A program made the translations under genes and the position numbers. 64,000 bases of DNA from Roseicyclus mahoneyensis (GTDB lineage Bacteria > Pseudomonadota > Alphaproteobacteria > Rhodobacterales > Rhodobacteraceae): contig NZ_QGGW01000003.1 in the NCBI RefSeq assembly GCF_003148775.1, forward strand, positions 310,001 through 374,000, read 5' to 3'. A model generated the notes under the pieces. It saw only the letters and a list, made by a program, of their open reading frames with translations. It made no database searches and was not told where the DNA came from. Below, piece by piece: positions 1 through 8,067 of the stretch (the stretch's first letter is position 1; the number at the start of each line of letters is the position of its first letter).

Positions 1-2
1 TC

Positions 3-416
3 CTTGCGGGGAACCTTGGCGCTCTTGAAAGGGATTTCCGCGCTGTCTGCGCGCATCTCGAGGCGCGCCGCGATGCCAATGGGTCCCTCACCGCGCATCA
101 GGCCGTGTGTCATCCGCTCGCTGATGTTCAGGCGCGCATCGAAGCCGCTAGGCTTATTCTTTATCGCGGAGCGTGGTCACTTGATCAGGGAAAAGACGCG
201 GCGCATTGGCCCTCGATTTCGAAACTGACGCTGGCCGAAACTCTCGTGGAATGCCATGTGATCCTTCGGCAGCTGATGGCGGGCGCGGGGTGGTCCAACC
301 AAGCGGGGATTGCTGATGCTTTGGACGATGCGCTGGCCGTGGCTGCGGCGTCAGGGACATCTGAAATCCAGAGAACCCTGATCGCCACGCGTCTTCATCA
401 AAGCGGGCAGCGATGA
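3..416 (+). CDS. C-terminal part of an acyl-CoA-dehydrogenase-like flavoprotein (possible aminoacyl-carrier-protein dehydrogenase)
   Basis: The reading frame is open from the left edge, so only about 137 C-terminal residues are present. They show the helical C-terminal domain of acyl-CoA dehydrogenases: an ARLILYRGAW helix, an LDQGKDAAHW segment, and the terminal ASGTSEIQRTLIA motif, which in this family lies near the active-site/FAD contact. The stop overlaps the next start (ATGA at 413-416), so the two are translationally coupled. Next to an adenylation enzyme, a carrier protein and a halogenase, the natural inference is a PltE/Bmp3-type flavoprotein that oxidises a carrier-bound amino acid (proline to pyrrole in the known cases). 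Ordinary acyl-CoA substrates cannot be excluded because the FAD and catalytic-base regions lie outside the window. Confidence 0.75.
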   Translation, partial: LAGNLGALERDFRAVCAHLEARRDANGSLTAHQAVCHPLADVQARIEAARLILYRGAWSLDQGKDAAHWPSISKLTLAETLVECHVILRQLMAGAGWSNQAGIADALDDALAVAAASGTSEIQRTLIATRLHQSGQR

Positions 417-1861
417 TCGTCTCGTTTCTTGCCCAGTCCACCAATCCACACCGGCTTGCGCTCAGCGATGAAACAGAACGGCTTACATGGGCCGACATGC
501 ACGCCCGCATTGCAGCCTTTGCGGACCATTTCCGTGCATCAGGTGTCAAGGCAGGCGACCCGGTCCTCATCACTTTGCCGAAGGGCTGCGACGCGGTCTG
601 TGCTCTTCTCGCGGCCTTGGCCATAGGCGCGATCGCTGTACCGCTGGACTACCGAACCCCCGACCGGCGCAAGGCCAGCGTGATCGAACGGATGGCGCCT
701 CGCCTTGAAGTCACGCAGGCAATCGCAGACGCTGTGCGCGCGGGCGCACCTGACGCTGCATCCTTCCAGCCCACTGCGATAGAGCCTGGGCATCCGGCGC
801 TCGTGCTCATGTCCTCTGGCACGACAGGGACGCCCAAGGCCATCACGATCAGCCACGGCAACCTGTCAGCCTTTGTGACTTGGGCCACCGAGGCCTTCTC
901 GCTTGGCAGCAGTGATCACATACTCTCCGTCGCACCGCTTCATTTCGATCTCGCAACCTTCGATATCTTCGCGGGGCTCGGCGCGGGGGCCCATGTGCAC
1001 CTGCTTTCCGAGATCGAGGCGAGCTTTCCCGCGAAGGTGGCTACAGTATCCCGCCGCGAGGGGGCGACACTGATTTACGCGGTTCCGACCGTCTATGCGA
1101 TGATTGCGCGTCTGCACGAGACGGCAATGCCGGCGTTTCGCTGGGTTCTCTTCGCAGGTGAGGTGATGAGCGCGCCAACGTTGCAGGCGCTGCGACGCTT
1201 TGCACCAAACGCGCGTCTGGCCAATCTCTACGGCCCCTCAGAGACGAATGTGGTGACTTGGCATGAGGTCACCGAAGCGGACACTTCGCTGGTGCCCATA
1301 GGTCGGCCCTGTAGCGGTGCGCGTGTCTGGATTGCCGATGCCGAAGGGCACTCGGTTCCCGTTGGTGAAGAAGGCGAGATCTGCGTCGAAGGACCGTCGG
1401 TCTTCCTGGGCTACTGGGGTGATCAGGACCGGACGCTCGGGACCCGACTGGACGGCCGGGCGACGACCTACCGAACTGGGGACTACGGTTGGCAAGACGC
1501 CAGCGATATCCTCCACCTGTCGGGGAGGCGTGACCGACAGATCAAGGTCCGCGGTATCCTCGTCAGCCTCGACGAAATAGAGGCCGTCGCCTCGCAGTCA
1601 CATCTGGTACAAGCCTGTGCAGTCGTTCAATACAGCTCCGGTCTGATTGACACGAATCTGCACTTGTTCATTGTGGTGGATGACCGAACCGTGGATGCCC
1701 GCAAGGAGGTAAGGGACTGGCTTTGCGGTCGCTTGCCACGGGTGTGTGTGCCGGGTCGCATTACTGTGGTTGAGGCGCTTCCCAGAACCTTGAACGGCAA
1801 AATTGACCGGCAAGCCCTCGACTCGAAATCGAAGGAGATACAGCGTGGACACTGGCTTTGA
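413..1861 (+). CDS. Stand-alone adenylation enzyme (AMP-binding; amino-acid-activating type)
   Basis: A 482-residue ANL-superfamily enzyme that would activate a carboxylic acid as acyl-AMP and load it on a carrier protein. Visible core motifs in order: P-loop-like MSSGTTGTPK (about residues 133-142), LYGPSET (about 272-278), YRTGD (about 353-357), RRDRQIKVRG, and near the C-terminus NGKIDR with the catalytic Lys (about 462-467). The length and the missing fused carrier domain fit free-standing prolyl-AMP ligases such as PltF. The substrate-pocket start, FDLATFDIF, gives Asp, Leu and Phe at the first code positions, which does not settle the substrate. It overlaps the gene before by 4 bp and the carrier-protein gene after by 17 bp. 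The adenylation call is firm; proline specificity is inferred from context. Confidence 0.9.
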   Translation: MIVSFLAQSTNPHRLALSDETERLTWADMHARIAAFADHFRASGVKAGDPVLITLPKGCDAVCALLAALAIGAIAVPLDYRTPDRRKASVIERMAPRLEVTQAIADAVRAGAPDAASFQPTAIEPGHPALVLMSSGTTGTPKAITISHGNLSAFVTWATEAFSLGSSDHILSVAPLHFDLATFDIFAGLGAGAHVHLLSEIEASFPAKVATVSRREGATLIYAVPTVYAMIARLHETAMPAFRWVLFAGEVMSAPTLQALRRFAPNARLANLYGPSETNVVTWHEVTEADTSLVPIGRPCSGARVWIADAEGHSVPVGEEGEICVEGPSVFLGYWGDQDRTLGTRLDGRATTYRTGDYGWQDASDILHLSGRRDRQIKVRGILVSLDEIEAVASQSHLVQACAVVQYSSGLIDTNLHLFIVVDDRTVDARKEVRDWLCGRLPRVCVPGRITVVEALPRTLNGKIDRQALDSKSKEIQRGHWL

Positions 1862-2108
1862 CCAACCGGATCGCGTGCTCCATGGAATTTTGGGCTGGAT
1901 CATGGACAAGACCGGAAGTTCGCCAGAGGATATCCAACCCGATACCGCGCTTTTGGACATTCAGCTTCTGGATTCGCTGCAACTCATGGACCTCGTCTTC
2001 TTCCTCGAGAAGACCCATGGGACGTCGATCCCCCTTGAGTGGTTAACGCCGGAAAACTTCGCCACACCAAGGGCTATTGGTGACATGATCAAGAAGGCAT
2101 GCGCATGA
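1845..2108 (+). CDS. Acyl/peptidyl carrier protein
   Basis: An 87-residue carrier protein starting at GTG 1845, chosen because GAAGGAGA (1831-1838) sits just upstream and an in-frame upstream extension would run far into the preceding gene. The phosphopantetheine attachment site is Ser44 in LLDSLQLMDL, preceded by the usual acidic loop-1 helix (SPEDIQPDTAL). It resembles small DltC/PltL-type carriers. It is placed between the adenylation enzyme (17-bp overlap) and the halogenase (ATGA overlap). Its likely job is to hold the activated amino acid while the dehydrogenase and halogenase act on it. A phosphopantetheinyl transferase is not visible in this window. Confidence 0.88.
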   Translation: MDTGFDQPDRVLHGILGWIMDKTGSSPEDIQPDTALLDIQLLDSLQLMDLVFFLEKTHGTSIPLEWLTPENFATPRAIGDMIKKACA

Positions 2109-3376
2109 CGGCTGATTTTGATGCCTTCGACGTTGTTGTCGTCGGAGCGGGTCCAGCGGGAAGCACATTGGCTTGGCGGCTCGCCAACCGCGGGCTGCGC
2201 GTGGCCGTGGTCGAGCGCGAGCACTTTCCGCGCCACCGCGTGGGTGAGTCTCTCACCGGCACAGCGGGGCAGCTCTTGCGCGACATGGGGCTTGAAGACG
2301 AGATGACGGCCCACGGCTTTCCGGTAAAGCGCGGCGTCAGGGTATATGGGCCAAACCCGCGCGCCACCTTTGATGTACCCATCATCGATATTGCGGAGGA
2401 TGGCAGCCACATTCCCAACCCGACATGGCAGGTCAGACGCCCCGAGTTCGACGCCATCTTGCTCAAGGCTGCCACGGACGCGGGCGCGGTGCACATTTGC
2501 GCCGACGCGCGCTCTGTCATCATGGATGATGCGCGCGTCACCGGTCTTGTGATCAGGACAGCCGACGGCGAAGACCGGAGCCTTCGATGCCGCTTCTTGG
2601 CCGATGCGTCAGGTTTTGGAACCTTCCTTTCCAAGGTGGGGGTTCTTGGTGTGCGGAACAAATGCGGCTTCGACAAACAGATTGCGTTTTATGCCCATGT
2701 CGACGGCGTCAGGCGGGACGAGGGCCCTACAAGCGGCAACACGCTTCTCTACTATACAAAACAGTATCATTGGTCCTGGCACATTCCAGTCAGTGACATG
2801 CGAACCAGCATCGGCATCGTCGTGCCGCAGGATACCTATCGTGCATCCGGACTTTCGCCGGAGGCATTCTACGATCATCAGCTTGCAACCCTGCACCCCG
2901 AACTTGCCGACCGTAGCGCGCGGGCGACGCGCGTGACAGAGGTCTGGACCCGTGCAAACTACTCCTACGAGATCGCCGATTTCGCGGGGCCGGGTTATGC
3001 AGCCATAGGGGATTCACACAGGTTCCTTGATCCCATCTTTTCCTTCGGCGTCTGGCTCGGATTGAAGGAGGCGGAACTGGTCGATGCTCTCATCGCGCAG
3101 ACCCTCGATGACCTGGCGACCGAGGGCGCCGCGATCGAGGCCTTCGTGACGACATCGAACCGCGCGCAGGCGGTGGTTACAACCATCCTCGACACGTTCT
3201 GGACGGTGCCGCTCGCCTTCTTGAAGCTCGCGCACTTCACCCACAAGCGCGAGGTGGCAGAACTGCTTGCTGGTCGGATTTTCGATCCATCGGTCGATGA
3301 CGTGGAGGCGCTTAGGTTGATGCGCCAGACACTGCAGAATTCGCGCGCCGAGGACAAAAACCATGTGGCCGCGTGA
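2105..3376 (+). CDS. Flavin-dependent halogenase (carrier-protein-substrate type)
   Basis: 423 residues if started at ATG 2105, which overlaps the carrier-protein stop; an ATG six bases earlier is in frame, but AAGAAGG at 2091-2097 spaces better for 2105. The N-terminus has the FAD Rossmann motif GAGPAG (14-19), followed by FPRHRVGESL, typical of FADH2 halogenases. GFPVKRG puts a Lys at residue 75 where the halogenase catalytic Lys is expected. WSWHIP (223-228) matches the family signature WxWxIP, which separates halogenases from flavin monooxygenases. Enzymes of this clade (PltA, Bmp2) act on pyrrolyl-carrier-protein substrates, and the carrier gene directly upstream agrees. Whether it chlorinates or brominates cannot be read. 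A flavin reductase is not encoded nearby. Confidence 0.88.
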   Translation: MTADFDAFDVVVVGAGPAGSTLAWRLANRGLRVAVVEREHFPRHRVGESLTGTAGQLLRDMGLEDEMTAHGFPVKRGVRVYGPNPRATFDVPIIDIAEDGSHIPNPTWQVRRPEFDAILLKAATDAGAVHICADARSVIMDDARVTGLVIRTADGEDRSLRCRFLADASGFGTFLSKVGVLGVRNKCGFDKQIAFYAHVDGVRRDEGPTSGNTLLYYTKQYHWSWHIPVSDMRTSIGIVVPQDTYRASGLSPEAFYDHQLATLHPELADRSARATRVTEVWTRANYSYEIADFAGPGYAAIGDSHRFLDPIFSFGVWLGLKEAELVDALIAQTLDDLATEGAAIEAFVTTSNRAQAVVTTILDTFWTVPLAFLKLAHFTHKREVAELLAGRIFDPSVDDVEALRLMRQTLQNSRAEDKNHVAA

Positions 3377-3965
3377 GACCAACGAGACCAAGATATCCAT
3401 TTGGGACAGAAAATGGGGATGTGCGGATTTCGACCCCCACTGGCGCATCGAGGTGCTTCCCGATTGGTTCGTGCAAGAGGTGGCGCGACTGCAAATCCCG
3501 CACGGAGCCAGATGGCTTGATGTCGGCTGCGGCGATGGGGTCCTGACAATGGATCTTGCGGCCCGGTTTGGCCCCTGCTTGGGCGTCGACTATTCCGCCG
3601 CTGCGGTGGAAAAGGCGCGTGCGCGGGCTGTCGCATCCGGTCATCAGGTTGGATTTGCATGTGCCGATGCCACGCGTGACGATATTGCGGGAGCCCCGTT
3701 CAACGTGGCTCATGACCGGGGATGTCTGCACGGTTTGGGGCACGACGATGCCGCGCTCTACGCCGCCAACATCGCGCGGCACTTGGCCCCTGATGGTATG
3801 CTCCTTTTGTCCCATCGCGTGGATCCTCAAGACGCCGACCTCGTTGACAGGACTGAAAGCGCCTTGGCGGATCATTTCGAACTGAGATCTGCCAACGAGA
3901 TGCGCTTCGCCGATGATGAAGATGCTCGGCAGGGCTGGTTCATGGTCTTCGACCGCAAGGTCTAG
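3363..3965 (+). CDS. Class I SAM-dependent methyltransferase
   Basis: 200 residues with the Rossmann motif I WLDVGCGDG (51-59), an acidic post-I residue in LGVDYS, and ACADATRDDI as motif II. The short single-domain layout resembles TehB/thiopurine-type small-molecule methyltransferases. The start lies inside the last codons of the halogenase (14-bp overlap), so it belongs to the same transcript. It is probably a tailoring O- or N-methyltransferase for the cluster product, but the target cannot be told from the sequence. Confidence 0.8.
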   Translation: MWPRETNETKISIWDRKWGCADFDPHWRIEVLPDWFVQEVARLQIPHGARWLDVGCGDGVLTMDLAARFGPCLGVDYSAAAVEKARARAVASGHQVGFACADATRDDIAGAPFNVAHDRGCLHGLGHDDAALYAANIARHLAPDGMLLLSHRVDPQDADLVDRTESALADHFELRSANEMRFADDEDARQGWFMVFDRKV

Positions 3966-3979
3966 CTGGGTATCATGCC

Positions 3980-5083
3980 ATGAACCCAAGAGAAATCATT
4001 CTCCATCTCGGTGCGAGCAAGACCGCGACAACATCGTTTCAGGGATATTGCTTGGAACATGAGGCCGCGCTCAACGCGCAAGGAATTGGGCGGGTCTCGG
4101 CTCTGCGGAACGGCTACAACGACAACTTTGCCGGATTCTACATGGGCATGCCTAAGCAATGGTCCAAGATAAGGATTTTGCCGGCTTTTCAGGGCCTTGA
4201 TCCGGACCAGGCTCAATCGCGTCTGCGGGACATCTTTCTCGCGGAGGCAAGGGTTTTCGGACACGAAAAGATGTTGATCACGTTCGAAGGTCTTCTTCCC
4301 CGGCAAAAGCATGAAATCGACAGATTCATGGCGCTCTGTCACGAGGTGACGTCGAATGTCTGGGCTGTCGTGGCCATCCGGCGGCAAGATCGTTGGGCGT
4401 TGAGTTCCTACAACACACGATTGGTCGGTGAGGTCCCGATCTCGGAAAATCCGCTGGAGAGCACACGTCAGGGGCGGCTTGAGCATCCGGAACCGGCTGG
4501 CATGCATTATGCAACATGTCTTTCGCACTGGGCCAAGCATATCCCGCGCGAGAAGCTCGCGGTGCTCGCCTACGAGGATCACCCAAACATGCTTGCGGCC
4601 TATTTTGCAGCCATCGGATTTGTCGCCGATACCCGAATAGAGGACAGAAGAAATACCGGCATGTCCGCCTATGGGCAGCAGGTGCTGCGCTTGGCGGGAA
4701 TGCGCGAGTTGGAGCGCGGGCGACCGCTTGGGGAGATCAAGCGATTGCAGCGTTTGCTCAAAGGCATTGTCCCGAGAGGTGAGGGGCGGCGCCCGAGTGC
4801 CGCTCAGGCCGCAGCCCATCTTGCGCATTTCGCGAAGGATCATGAACGGTTGAGGGGGGATTGGCTGCCGGAAACGTCCAAATTCTTCGAGGACGATGCA
4901 CCCTATCCGGACGAAGCCACCGTCGTACAGATCGCAGACGACGAGCTCGAGGAGTGGATCGCGAAGGCGGAAAAATTCGGACCCGATCGCATTGACCGGG
5001 ATGGCGGCATTGTCACTCCAGGAACAGCGGCGTGGCACAGGCTCGAGGCGATCAGCCGCGGCACCTTGAGTGCCATATCATGA
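3980..5083 (+). CDS. Sulfotransferase-like protein
   Basis: 367 residues. The N-terminal HLGASKTATTSFQ (9-21) has the form of the PAPS 5'-phosphosulfate-binding loop (HxGxxKTGTTxLQ) of bacterial sulfotransferases, with Ala replacing the usual middle Gly. A second conserved-looking stretch, WAVVAIRRQDRWALSSYN, resembles the 3'-phosphate-binding region (RxxxxxxxS). It follows the methyltransferase by 14 bp and overlaps the next gene by an ATGA. Related proteins in marine Rhodobacterales are usually annotated only as sulfotransferase family, so acceptor and activity are unknown. The sulfotransferase fold call is moderately firm. Confidence 0.65.
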   Translation: MNPREIILHLGASKTATTSFQGYCLEHEAALNAQGIGRVSALRNGYNDNFAGFYMGMPKQWSKIRILPAFQGLDPDQAQSRLRDIFLAEARVFGHEKMLITFEGLLPRQKHEIDRFMALCHEVTSNVWAVVAIRRQDRWALSSYNTRLVGEVPISENPLESTRQGRLEHPEPAGMHYATCLSHWAKHIPREKLAVLAYEDHPNMLAAYFAAIGFVADTRIEDRRNTGMSAYGQQVLRLAGMRELERGRPLGEIKRLQRLLKGIVPRGEGRRPSAAQAAAHLAHFAKDHERLRGDWLPETSKFFEDDAPYPDEATVVQIADDELEEWIAKAEKFGPDRIDRDGGIVTPGTAAWHRLEAISRGTLSAIS

Positions 5084-7812
5084 ACCTGCATCGCCGCAAT
5101 GCTATTGCCTTCGAAAGCACCGCGCAGGGTTTTCTGATCATGGCTGTGCCGCGGTCAGGCACGACGTTGCTGGCGCGCGTCATGAACGCACATCCCGATA
5201 TCGTTTGCGGGTCCGAACGTTTTCATGGCCATACCTTTTCGCCCGAGAGCCTGTCCGAGATCGGGTTTCGCACGCTTGACCTTGAGCGCAAGGACGCGCT
5301 CGCATCTGCGGCAAACCTCAGGGAAAAAGCGGATCGGCCGGGGGTCACCTTCGGCGAGAAGTTTCCTCGGGCCTATCTTCATATGCGCACGACGATGCCG
5401 CGTTTCGAGGAAAAGGGCGCGCGGCTCAAGATCATCGTCCCCATGCGAAACGCCGACGAGGTGGCGCAGTCCTGGTACCAAAGGGCGGTTAATCCAGAGG
5501 ACAAGCACTGGCCAGCGGGCATGTACGGCGTCTTTCCGTATATCGAGCAACTTCTGCTCATGCGGTGTCTCGCCGACCTTCGCAGGCCAGCGGACGTGCT
5601 GCTCGTCTCGTACGAAAAGATGCTCGCCCGGGATACCGCACCAAAGATCTTCGACGCCATAGCGGAGCATATCGGCGTGGGCGACCCTTCCCCGTTTCTC
5701 GCCGCCCTTAGTGACAATGCGCGCGTCACCCAGAATTCCCGCGACAGGGACAGGTCGCAAGACCCCACGAAGTTCGAAGCGGGCTCCGCCTTGGTTCCGG
5801 CTTTCACGTCCGTCTTGGGTGAGGCTGGAACCGTCTCTCTTGCTGACGTACGGAACGCGCTCAGTGGGCTAATGGAAGATGCCTTGGCCAATGAAGCCCT
5901 GAGAAGGGCATTGCTCGGTGCGCTGGCTGATACCTCGGACCCCGATCAGATCTCGTATCGCGCTACGATCAAAGACATCTATGCGCGAGAACTTCCATCC
6001 CTTGACGGCGACTTTGCCCGCGAAGCGATCGCGGCAATGCAAGCCACGCATCAGGGATCTATCGCGCCAGCGGCCACGCTCGGCGCCAACCTGGTGATCC
6101 ACTACGACGTGAGCGACGTGGTGCAATTCCTGTCGGTACATGGCTCTGTCACCGGAATCCAGCGTGTGCAACTCGACGCGGTTCTCGCCGCCGCCGAGCG
6201 TGGGACTTCCACCGATCAGGACAAGGCGGTCATCCTCGATGCGCAGCGCGGCTGGATTTCTCTCCCGCTCAAGGATTTCGCGCAGACCATGGTTTCGGGC
6301 GCGTCTTTGGAGGAAGCGGCGAAATCTTGCATGGAGCAATTGCCACGCCATGAACCCGCATGCTTTGGCTCCCGTGATGTGATTGTGTTTCTGGGGGCCA
6401 CCTGGACGGCACCAGGTCTGACCACCTCCATGGGCGATTTGCGCCGGTCGGGCGCGCGCATCGTGACATACATCCACGACGTTCTGCCTCTCGAGATGCC
6501 CGAAAACTTCCCGAAGGGGCACGCGAAAGCCTTTGAGCAGTGGCTCAAGACAATCCTGACCAATTCCGCCGCGATCTTGTGTAATTCCGAGGAAACGAAG
6601 GCTGCGCTTCTTGCGCACGCCCGGGTACGGCTGCCGGTCGGTGTCGTGAACCTCGACATAATGCCGACATTTGTCAAAGAACATCTGGCGCGACCCGAAC
6701 ACGAGCGTAGAGCTCCACTCGATGCGCTGGAACTGGCGAGCGTTGACTATGTGCTAGCCGTGGGAACGCTAGAGCCGCGCAAGAACCACCTCACCTTGAT
6801 CAACGCCTGGACGGCACTTCAGCGCAAGCTGGGAACGAGCTGCCCAAAGCTTGTGCTAGTCGGGAAGGACGGCTGGAAGACGGCGGGCATCCATGAGGCC
6901 CTCGAGTCGAGCTCGGATCATTGTGACATTCTTCTTCTTCAGCACACAGACAACGAGACCTTGGCTGCCCTTTACGAAAATGCGCTGATGACGGTGTCAA
7001 TTAGCCGGGGCGAGGGCTGGAATTTGCCGGTGACCGAGTCCCTCGCATCCGGCGTGCCTGTCTTCGCAGGGCGGGCCTCTGCGGCAAAGGCGGCCCTGCA
7101 AGGTCTGGCATTCGAGACAGATGCCCTCTCAGAGCGAAACGTGCGCAGCCGTCTCCAAGAGGTGCTGTCGGATCGAGAAGGCCTTGCGCGGAAAAGGGCC
7201 CTCGTCCGACAGAAGGCACGTTTCAAGGAATGGGGCGACCTGATCATGGAAACGCGCCGGTTCATCGACAAGATGCTACCGGCCGGGCCCGTCTCGTACG
7301 GTGTACAGACACGCCATCCCTACAGATACGGACGCGATCAGGAAAGCGATCTTAAATCGAACCGCATCACAGGTCTTCAGATGCGTACGGGTCTTGGCTG
7401 GAACGCACCCGACAGTTGGGGCTGTTGGTCGAGTGCCAGCATCGCCGAAATTGATCTCTTTGATCTTCCCGTCGGGTCTTATACTGCCTATGCCGTCCTG
7501 ACGACGACAGACAAACTTACTTCGTTGCCGCTCAAAGTCCGTGGGCCCGATGGCCCGACCTGGCAAGGTACTCTTCATGCAGGGCAAAGGAGTCTCGTGG
7601 CCGTCGATTTCGACTTGCCACCCAGCGTACAAGGAAAAGGGACCCTGACATTCACTTCGGGTGAGCCTTACGATTTCGCAAACGATGACAGCTTCGCCGA
7701 AATGCGAACACTGGGTTTCGCCCTCATTGAGCTTGTCCTTCTGGCGCGGGCAGATATGGCGGGCCGGGTAGAAACAATGGAGGTGATGTTGAGCACCTAT
7801 ATGGCCCATTGA
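5080..7812 (+). CDS. Sulfotransferase-glycosyltransferase (GT4) fusion protein
   Basis: About 910 residues from ATG 5080, which overlaps the previous stop (ATGA); an in-frame upstream start would lie inside the previous gene. Residues about 18-300 form a sulfotransferase with PAPS loop MAVPRSGTTLL. Residues about 333-730 form a GT-B glycosyltransferase: VTGIQRVQ, YIHDVLPLE, AVGTLEPRKN and the GT4 nucleotide-sugar signature GEGWNLPVTE (E-x7-E, about 644-653). The last 170 or so residues (WGCWSSASIAEIDLF and following) are strand-rich and resemble the beta-sandwich tail found on some polysaccharide glycosyltransferases. No signal peptide is seen. It is the last gene of the run. One polypeptide could both glycosylate and sulfate a product, but the substrate is unknown. 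Confidence 0.8.
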   Translation: MNLHRRNAIAFESTAQGFLIMAVPRSGTTLLARVMNAHPDIVCGSERFHGHTFSPESLSEIGFRTLDLERKDALASAANLREKADRPGVTFGEKFPRAYLHMRTTMPRFEEKGARLKIIVPMRNADEVAQSWYQRAVNPEDKHWPAGMYGVFPYIEQLLLMRCLADLRRPADVLLVSYEKMLARDTAPKIFDAIAEHIGVGDPSPFLAALSDNARVTQNSRDRDRSQDPTKFEAGSALVPAFTSVLGEAGTVSLADVRNALSGLMEDALANEALRRALLGALADTSDPDQISYRATIKDIYARELPSLDGDFAREAIAAMQATHQGSIAPAATLGANLVIHYDVSDVVQFLSVHGSVTGIQRVQLDAVLAAAERGTSTDQDKAVILDAQRGWISLPLKDFAQTMVSGASLEEAAKSCMEQLPRHEPACFGSRDVIVFLGATWTAPGLTTSMGDLRRSGARIVTYIHDVLPLEMPENFPKGHAKAFEQWLKTILTNSAAILCNSEETKAALLAHARVRLPVGVVNLDIMPTFVKEHLARPEHERRAPLDALELASVDYVLAVGTLEPRKNHLTLINAWTALQRKLGTSCPKLVLVGKDGWKTAGIHEALESSSDHCDILLLQHTDNETLAALYENALMTVSISRGEGWNLPVTESLASGVPVFAGRASAAKAALQGLAFETDALSERNVRSRLQEVLSDREGLARKRALVRQKARFKEWGDLIMETRRFIDKMLPAGPVSYGVQTRHPYRYGRDQESDLKSNRITGLQMRTGLGWNAPDSWGCWSSASIAEIDLFDLPVGSYTAYAVLTTTDKLTSLPLKVRGPDGPTWQGTLHAGQRSLVAVDFDLPPSVQGKGTLTFTSGEPYDFANDDSFAEMRTLGFALIELVLLARADMAGRVETMEVMLSTYMAH

Positions 7813-8067
7813 CGCGGTTGCAGCGTTTGACCTTTCCCGCACACCGTCGGCACAAGTAGGAAAACGGACTAGTGGCCGGCCGATCTCCTGCGTGACATTC
7901 CGCAAAAGCCGTTGCTCGGGCGCTGGCGAGCGAAGGACCCGAGCAAGCCTCACCCGCACCAAGTTTTGCGCGCTACCGCCCTGCCGGCTGCTTGAGCGCG
8001 GGCTTGTTGACCTGCCGACCTTCGGGATAGGTGAGTGCGGGGCCGCAGGAGCCCTCACGAGGGCGGC

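What the first reader, a model, noticed from the sequence alone, without database searches (positions are those of the whole stretch)
3..3376. Carrier-protein halogenation cassette (dehydrogenase, adenylation, carrier, halogenase) in a Rhodobacterales-like genome
Seen: four overlapping genes encoding the end of an acyl-CoA-dehydrogenase-like flavoprotein, a free-standing adenylation enzyme, a carrier protein (Ser44) and a halogenase with GAGPAG, Lys75 and WSWHIP. Known: in pyoluteorin (PltE, F, L, A) and marine bromopyrrole (Bmp) pathways these four activities turn proline into halogenated pyrrolyl-carrier. Inference: this cluster makes a halogenated pyrrole or a similar carrier-bound heterocycle. 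To my knowledge the set is not a standard Rhodobacterales feature.
Basis: partly seen in the sequence, partly recalled or inferred. Interest (0 to 1): 0.8.

Follow-up and report, generated by a model that had tools for sequence, protein, structure and literature searches.

The report
Halopyrrole gene island with acyltransferase release
A small inserted gene island in a Rhodobacteraceae bacterium encodes enzymes predicted to turn proline into a halogen-bearing pyrrole and, unlike the best-known bromopyrrole pathway, probably to hand it to another molecule such as a sugar or lipid instead of cutting it free.

Summary
In detail: window 3-3376 holds the end of an acyl-CoA-dehydrogenase-like gene, a stand-alone adenylation enzyme, a carrier and a flavin halogenase. 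The complete dehydrogenase (380 aa, -726..416) scores best on PigA/RedW prolyl-carrier dehydrogenases. The adenylation code DLFYLALVVK agrees with a solved proline enzyme at 8 of 10 sites. The halogenase groups with Bmp2 and keeps the catalytic Lys. The pyrrole reading is well supported; no chemistry was tested.

No thioesterase gene was recognised in it. It has two divergent HtrB/PatA-type acyltransferases, a methyltransferase, an unassigned protein and a sulfotransferase-glycosyltransferase fusion. The two closest relatives found (Sphingomonadales and Parasphingopyxis MAGs) have the same four genes plus one such acyltransferase after the halogenase, a carrier without thioesterase domain, and F/I/V (window F/L/V) where Bmp2 has Y/F/A.

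Best reading: a new variant of the pyrrolyl-carrier halogenation cassette in which the halopyrrole is transferred to a hydroxyl acceptor instead of being hydrolysed. The transfer step, acceptor, halide and halogen number are inferred.

The parts
1..7961 (.). window part of the ~10.8 kb genomic island; on the same contig it reaches back to -2844 (window x = L007 x+10000). Upstream, outside the window: tRNA-Leu(tag) -2917..-2833 with the left repeat copy at its 3' end (-2844..-2833); acyltransferase P0005 -2623..-1655; acyltransferase P0006 -1700..-723; start of the dehydrogenase at -726
   Evidence: five genus relatives lack these genes between the same flanking genes; tRNA; 12-base repeat at both borders; GC 60.2% against 65.3% and 67.1% beside it; P0006 Lip_A_acyltrans 1.1e-11, model matches PatA and LpxM; P0005 29.6% identical to P0006, E 1e-30, Pfam only 0.013, below cut-off
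1..416 (+). end of the prolyl-carrier dehydrogenase-like flavoprotein P0004 (380 aa, whole gene -726..416)
   Evidence: PigA 6.1e-72, RedW 1.3e-62; Glu239
413..1861 (+). stand-alone adenylation enzyme, predicted proline, P0002
1845..2108 (+). carrier protein, 87 aa, Ser44, no thioesterase domain
   Evidence: PP-binding 2.2e-6, scanned from codon 1803
2099..3376 (+). Bmp2-like flavin halogenase, P0003
   Evidence: Bmp2 282 bits; tree
3363..3965 (+). SAM methyltransferase, P0007
   Evidence: Methyltransf_25 5.7e-17
3980..5083 (+). P0008, unassigned; a P-loop-like LHLGASKTATTSFQ start seen by eye suggests a sulfotransferase
   Evidence: no Pfam or NCBIfam match; model unusable, pLDDT 35
5032..7812 (+). 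P0009, sulfotransferase-like domain fused to GT4 glycosyltransferase (an ATG at 5080 is also possible)
   Evidence: Sulfotransfer_3 1.7e-6, Glyco_trans_1_4 6.4e-11
7950..7961 (+). right copy of the direct repeat TCACCCGCACCA (tRNA-Leu 3' end)
   Evidence: only two copies in 84 kb, both strands searched

Best explanation
An acquired ~10.8 kb biosynthetic island. The adenylation enzyme activates proline and loads it on the carrier (Ser44); the dehydrogenase oxidises it to pyrrole-2-carboxyl-carrier; the Bmp2-like halogenase halogenates the carrier-bound pyrrole using reduced flavin, O2 and halide. Instead of thioesterase hydrolysis, the HtrB/PatA-type acyltransferases use a His-Asp pair to move the halopyrrole carboxyl group from the carrier to a hydroxyl group of an acceptor, most likely a sugar or (glyco)lipid, which the neighbouring glycosyltransferase, sulfotransferase-like and methyltransferase genes build or trim. 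Shown: gene content and order, homology, conserved residues, island borders, the same five-gene set in two other genomes. Inferred: every chemical step, the acceptor, the halide and the number of halogens.
For: Cassette homology. Acyltransferase linked to this halogenase type in 3 of 3 loci of the window type (window, L011, L012), one such gene per genome in the genomes of L011 and L012 and none in G008, which has the thioesterase type (G008 is 82% complete). Thioesterase-like hydrolase domain on the carrier in 2 of 2 bmp-type carriers scanned and in 0 of 3 window-type carriers. His147 and Asp216 of P0006, invariant in the four acyltransferases, align with the PatA residues that I count as H126 and E200, shown essential in PMC4792965. 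Whole island gained at tRNA-Leu. Precedents: pyrrole-2-carboxyl transfer from carrier to a sugar in clorobiocin (PMC11218499); LPLAT plus glycosyltransferase proposed for aryl polyenes (PMC8253772).
Against: No biochemistry. The acyltransferase order differs (upstream and double in the window, downstream and single in the MAGs) and the proteins share only 24-30% identity across the two types of locus or within the window pair. The HX4(D/E) acid is missing in all four, although the title of 5knk calls that acid (E127) catalytic in LpxM. P0005 is below the Pfam cut-off. The model has pLDDT 67, and its matches have TM 0.47-0.51 with rmsd over 8 A; profile matches to PatA and LpxM are weak, E about 0.04. 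The trio of halogenases is weakly grouped (81/74). A thioesterase elsewhere in the genome was not searched for.
Confidence: 0.58

Rival explanations
1. An alphaproteobacterial tetrabromopyrrole-type pathway: polyhalogenation on the carrier, then release and decarboxylation by a thioesterase encoded elsewhere or spontaneously; the acyltransferases do something else.
For: Halogenase and adenylation enzyme are nearest to Bmp-like enzymes. Bmp-type loci exist in the same family (L010). A thioesterase elsewhere in the genome was not excluded.
Against: No hydrolase domain on the carrier and no hydrolase family match among the island genes; Bmp2's Y/F/A sites, kept in 8 of 8 bmp-type rows, are changed in 3 of 3 window-type rows; acyltransferase linkage in all three loci.
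Confidence: 0.2
2. The cassette makes the (halo)pyrrole, but the acyltransferases add an ordinary fatty acyl group (as lipid A enzymes do) to the same glycoconjugate, and the pyrrole is used in another way.
For: The fold matches are fatty acyltransferases PatA and LpxM; there are two copies in the window's island.
Against: No fatty-acid synthase family match among the island genes; L011 and L012 have one copy, next to the halogenase, and no other candidate release enzyme was seen between the cassette genes.
Confidence: 0.14
3. The flavin enzyme is a monooxygenase, not a halogenase, so the product is an oxidised or plain pyrrole.
For: The fold is shared with hydroxylases and reductases; NCBIfam ranks QhpG, a flavin monooxygenase, second with 117 bits after CmlS, 127.7, both below cut-off.
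Against: Closest solved relative is Bmp2 by a wide margin; catalytic Lys aligned and W-x-W-x-I-P kept; p-hydroxybenzoate hydroxylases score E about 1e-4 only.
Confidence: 0.05
4. Ordinary fatty-acid or other acyl metabolism misread as a pyrrole pathway.
For: All families are large and versatile; scores are below the curated cut-offs of PigA and RedW.
Against: Four enzymes of one known pathway side by side, the proline-type code, and rankings.
Confidence: 0.03

Closest known systems
Bmp1-4 tetrabromopyrrole cassette (Pseudoalteromonas; bmp-type locus L010 in Rhodobacteraceae MAG.057)
   Same: Same four activities; halogenase 41% identical to Bmp2 over the aligned stretch, same clade
   Different: Carrier free, not fused to a hydrolase; gene order differs; Bmp2 triad changed; acyltransferases present
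PigI/PigA/PigG and RedM/RedW/RedO (prodiginines), PltF/E/L (pyoluteorin): proline to pyrrolyl-carrier (gene names beyond PigA, RedW and PltA are recalled)
   Same: Adenylation code 8 of 10 as in 6o6e (PigI by recall); dehydrogenase nearest to PigA/RedW models
   Different: No polyketide or condensation family match among the island genes
Clorobiocin CloN2/CloN7 pyrrole transfer (PMC11218499, passages)
   Same: Carrier-bound pyrrole-2-carboxyl passed to a sugar hydroxyl instead of hydrolysis; methyltransferase involved
   Different: CloN2 and CloN7 were not compared with the acyltransferases here (different families by recall); that pyrrole is methylated, not halogenated
Aryl polyene ApeD/ApeJ; PatA and LpxM acyltransferases
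   Same: LPLAT-type enzymes proposed to place a carrier-made aromatic acid on a membrane lipid (PMC8253772, passages); fold match to PatA and LpxM
   Different: Predicted cargo is a pyrrole carboxylate; HX4(D/E) acid replaced by L, Q, H or R

Membership tests
Pyrrolyl-carrier halogenation cassette | stand-alone proline adenylation enzyme | tested here: met
   sequence only: 6o6e 223.6 bits, code 8 of 10
Pyrrolyl-carrier halogenation cassette | prolyl-carrier dehydrogenase with catalytic Glu | tested here: met
   PigA/RedW best models, Glu239 aligned; curated cut-offs not reached
Pyrrolyl-carrier halogenation cassette | carrier with attachment Ser | tested here: met
   PP-binding, Ser44
Pyrrolyl-carrier halogenation cassette | flavin halogenase with catalytic Lys and W-x-W-x-I-P | tested here: met
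Pyrrolyl-carrier halogenation cassette | halogenation of carrier-bound pyrrole | not testable with these tools
   needs assay
Bmp (tetrabromopyrrole) system | carrier fused to thioesterase (Bmp1) | tested here: not met
   PP-binding only; hydrolase domain in L010 and L014
Bmp (tetrabromopyrrole) system | Y302/F306/A345 active site | tested here: not met
   F/L/V
Bmp (tetrabromopyrrole) system | Bmp5-8 partner genes (needed for pentabromopseudilin, not for tetrabromopyrrole) | not tested
   no P450 or chorismate lyase family match among the island genes, but not searched genome-wide
HtrB/PatA-type acyltransferases (Pfam Lip_A_acyltrans) | family match above cut-off | tested here: inconclusive
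   met for P0006, P0010, P0011; not met for P0005
HtrB/PatA-type acyltransferases (Pfam Lip_A_acyltrans) | HX4(D/E) motif | tested here: not met
   L, Q, H, R at the acid position
HtrB/PatA-type acyltransferases (Pfam Lip_A_acyltrans) | catalytic His plus block-3 acid (PatA H126/E200) | tested here: met
   H147/D216 invariant and aligned; weak alignment
tRNA-borne genomic island | tRNA end, direct repeat, empty site in relatives | tested here: met
tRNA-borne genomic island | integrase gene | tested here: inconclusive
   no such Pfam match among the nine island proteins, one of them unassigned; small frames and other places not searched

The most novel reading that the evidence does not exclude
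A new class of halopyrrole natural product in Alphaproteobacteria: a halogenated pyrrole-2-carboxylate built on a carrier and esterified by HtrB/PatA-type acyltransferases onto a sulfated glycan or glycolipid, possibly at the cell surface, carried into this genome as a tRNA-Leu island.
Probability: 0.3. Interest if true: 0.78.

Novelty: new variant of a known kind. Interest (0 to 1): 0.58.

Why it matters
Halopyrroles are potent marine signals and toxins: tetrabromopyrrole induces coral larval metamorphosis (abstract of PMC10509201) and harms phytoplankton (title of PMC6195506). A second branch of the Bmp2 halogenase group, in Alphaproteobacteria and without thioesterase, would extend who can make halopyrroles and in what form. 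It offers a test of whether release enzyme and halogenase active site change together, and would show lipid-A-type acyltransferases handling a carrier-bound halogenated heterocycle. None of nine paper searches (seen as ranked listings, five papers read in passages) showed such a combination; subscription papers are mostly missing from that library.

Tried and rejected
Rejected: ordinary fatty-acid ligase and acyl-CoA dehydrogenase (rankings). The top solved dehydrogenase 6cxt is named 'Butyryl-CoA dehydrogenase' but its aligned stretch is 79% identical to the bmp3-position protein of P. luteoviolacea L014, so the name does not speak against a pyrrole role. Rejected: membership in the Bmp system (two features tested and not met).

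Led nowhere: viral-contig scan (5 pattern matches, no relative); plasmids by tblastn (55 records, all under 60% identity; the 30 listed at most 37.6%); P0008 structure (pLDDT 35, not searched further); promoter/terminator scan (at chance level). Acyltransferase profile: 2 of 348 other phylum genomes at 1e-12, both partial matches; the ORF lists of those two short loci showed no cassette gene by eye. In the genus 4 of 12 others match weakly at 1e-3. Low third-position GC is not unique to the island: 7 of 31 other long frames of the window, as chosen by my script, are also below 75%, so composition is only supporting evidence. In one search, 6 of the 14 fetched Pseudoalteromonas halogenases were used, besides Bmp2 itself (99.5% identical to one of them, so not independent). 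Hydrolase domains were scanned in 2 bmp-type carriers only; the window's carrier had no blastp match in L013. For L012 I trimmed over-long reading-frame starts by hand (before counting). In the empty-site test, of 8 relatives with both flanking genes matched, 3 (G198, G203, G206) have them on different contigs and say nothing.

On rechecking I added one fact against my reading, that the title of 5knk calls LpxM E127 catalytic, and lowered the best explanation from 0.60 to 0.58 for it.
Full report
Observation. The window is G000:C3:310001-374000, so the contig continues upstream; negative numbers below are that upstream sequence (window x = L007 x+10000). Pfam confirms each. The Trp_halogenase model by itself is unspecific: it rings in 5 of 14 control genomes.

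The four enzymes. The complete dehydrogenase (380 aa, -726..416) matches PigA at 6.1e-72 (242.8 bits) and RedW at 1.3e-62 (211.8), with 125.6 bits for the next family, but below the curated cut-offs of 500 and 650. Glu239 aligns with the W-E-R/K glutamate of 6cxt and of 5zw0, an L-prolyl-carrier dehydrogenase; its role as catalytic base is recalled. The adenylation enzyme hits two-module gramicidin synthase first by summed score; the best single-domain chain is 6o6e (223.6 bits) and 7thn has 186.1, both named L-proline--[L-prolyl-carrier protein] ligase; that 6o6e is PigI and 7thn PltF is recalled. Code residues read from an alignment with the 6o6e letters: 6o6e DLLYLALVCK, window DLFYLALVVK, L012 DLLYLALVVK, L011 DLLYFALVIK, three Pseudoalteromonas rows DLLYIAFVCK, L010 DLLYCAFVCK (which columns form the code is recalled). 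The halogenase hits Bmp2 with 282 bits, its mutant 278.7, then 8zop 159.4, 3e1t 154.3, Mpy16 132.1 and PltA 121.7 (Bmp2, Mpy16 and PltA entries named).

Relatives. One scan of the species-genome collection with a three-sequence halogenase alignment gave 17 loci from 76 pattern matches: L011 (Sphingomonadales MAG, 44%), L012 (Parasphingopyxis MAG, 45%), 14 Pseudoalteromonas loci (39-41%) and Rhodobacteraceae MAG.057 (39%). The scan needs short conserved peptides, so distant loci can be missed. In sampled genomes the halogenase is rare: 2 of 198 in the family, 1 of 13 in the genus, 1 of 390 in the order, 1 of 385 in the class, own genome counted each time, samples overlapping.

Two types of locus. 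The bmp-type loci examined (L010, L013, L014, L025) hold dehydrogenase, adenylation enzyme and halogenase; a carrier was matched in L010, L014 and L025 and carries an alpha/beta-hydrolase domain in both that were scanned, L010 and L014. L011 and L012 have dehydrogenase, adenylation enzyme, carrier and halogenase in the window's order, then an HtrB-like acyltransferase directly downstream, and a carrier without hydrolase domain. The window's contig has two such acyltransferases upstream of the dehydrogenase, at -2623..-1655 and -1700..-723. A profile of the four acyltransferases finds one copy in each of the genomes of L011 and L012 and none in G008, the bmp-type Rhodobacteraceae genome, 82% complete.

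Halogenase tree and active site. In a tree of 14 rows, window, L011, L012 and the 8 bmp-type rows form one group (99/98) apart from Mpy16, 3e1t and 8zop; the bmp-type rows form a group (99/97); the window with L011 and L012 is only weakly held together (81/74). PMC5577590 (passages) reports that Y302S/F306V/A345W makes tetrabrominating Bmp2 mono-halogenating; PMC8407142 (passages) says that the mutant goes no further than dibromination. Both tie the sites to halogen number. They read Y/F/A in 8 of 8 bmp-type rows, F/L/V in the window, F/I/V in L011 and L012, S/V/W in Mpy16. I infer a link between release mode and active site; three loci cannot prove it, and halogen number cannot be predicted.

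Acyltransferases. P0006 matches Pfam Lip_A_acyltrans at 1.1e-11, the MAG proteins P0010 and P0011 at 6.6e-7 and 6.6e-8, P0005 only at 0.013, below the cut-off. The window pair is 29.6% identical (E 1e-30); each is 24-27% identical to the MAG pair, which share 39%. The AlphaFold2 model from four sequences has pLDDT 67.2; its first 14 PDB matches are PatA and LpxM (E 4.5e-8 or better, TM 0.47-0.51 by query length, rmsd 8-14 A), and the next match is 8.8e-3. The classical HX4(D/E) acid is missing in all four (L in P0005, Q in P0006, H in P0010, R in P0011). Against competence, the title of LpxM entry 5knk calls the E127A exchange one of a catalytic residue, and E127 is by my count that HX4E acid. 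For competence, PMC4792965 (passages) reports that in PatA the HX4D acid is structural (D131A keeps 37% activity), that H126 and E200 are essential, and that HtrB and MsbB seem to use an acid of that later block too. P0006 H147 and D216, invariant in the four, align with PatA chain positions 122 and 196, which I take as H126 and E200 by a constant offset of 4 (weak profile matches, E about 0.04). PatA acylates a mannose hydroxyl of a glycolipid.

Island. ARAGORN finds tRNA-Leu(tag) at L007:7083-7167, i.e. -2917..-2833. Its last 12 bases recur at window 7950-7961; this 12-mer occurs only twice in the 84 kb examined, both strands; repeats of similar length occur elsewhere in the stretch, so position is what counts. 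The flanking genes (by eye an NAD(P)H-hydrate epimerase homologue and a homocysteine methyltransferase-like gene) were matched in 12 and 9 of 13 genus genomes. Of 8 relatives with both, 5 (G199, G200, G201, G202, G205) have them about 0.9-1.6 kb apart, 3 on different contigs; here they are 11.7 kb apart. In the five the stretch between aligns with our tRNA and holds a Hint-like frame (by eye). GC is 60.2% in the island against 65.3% and 67.1% beside it. So the nine genes were probably gained together and probably serve one pathway.

Other island genes. P0007 is a SAM methyltransferase and P0009 a sulfotransferase-like domain fused to a GT4 glycosyltransferase; P0008 is unassigned. In family samples P0009 is matched in 2 of 149 genomes (own, and one partial at 31%), P0008 in 1 of 149 (own). 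Near L012 lie, on the other strand, a double sulfotransferase and an EryCIII-like glycosyltransferase and genes that by eye look like dTDP-rhamnose synthesis; blastp found no link to P0008 or P0009. They hint at a glycosylated acceptor but do not show one.

Mechanism and precedents. Clorobiocin shows transfer of a carrier-bound pyrrole-2-carboxyl group to a sugar hydroxyl (PMC11218499, passages). For aryl polyenes, transfer of a carrier-made aromatic acid to a lipid anchor by an LPLAT and a glycosyltransferase/acyltransferase is proposed (PMC8253772, passages). The simplest reading of the island joins both ideas. I put the halopyrrolyl-carrier part at about 0.85 and the whole explanation with transfer at 0.58.

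Novelty. Nine paper searches (listings, five papers read in passages) showed no halopyrrole cassette with such an acyltransferase. Most subscription papers are not in that library, and antiSMASH and MIBiG could not be asked. I file it as a new variant of a known kind.

Noticed in passing
L010:4363-9416 (reverse complement of L027, Rhodobacteraceae MAG.057 contig JAHQVS010000311.1): A bmp-type cassette (carrier-hydrolase fusion, halogenase with Y/F/A, dehydrogenase, adenylation enzyme) in the window's own family, outside Pseudoalteromonas.
   Followed up: partly
L012:12232-18398: Next to the Parasphingopyxis cassette, on the other strand, lie genes that look by eye like dTDP-rhamnose synthesis, then a double sulfotransferase and an EryCIII-like glycosyltransferase.
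   Followed up: no
window 5032-7812: Unusual fusion of a sulfotransferase-like domain with a GT4 glycosyltransferase; matched in 2 of 149 family genomes, own included.
   Followed up: partly
L007:7083-7167 (window -2917..-2833): tRNA-Leu(tag) next to a homocysteine methyltransferase-like gene seems to be an integration site; in L058 and L061 there is also extra sequence between the two.
   Followed up: no
L029:1156-2106 and L030:916-1887: LpxL-like proteins of other bacteria also lack the acid of HX4(D/E) (HLGNFT, HFGANQ by eye), so its loss may not be peculiar to the halopyrrole loci.
   Followed up: no
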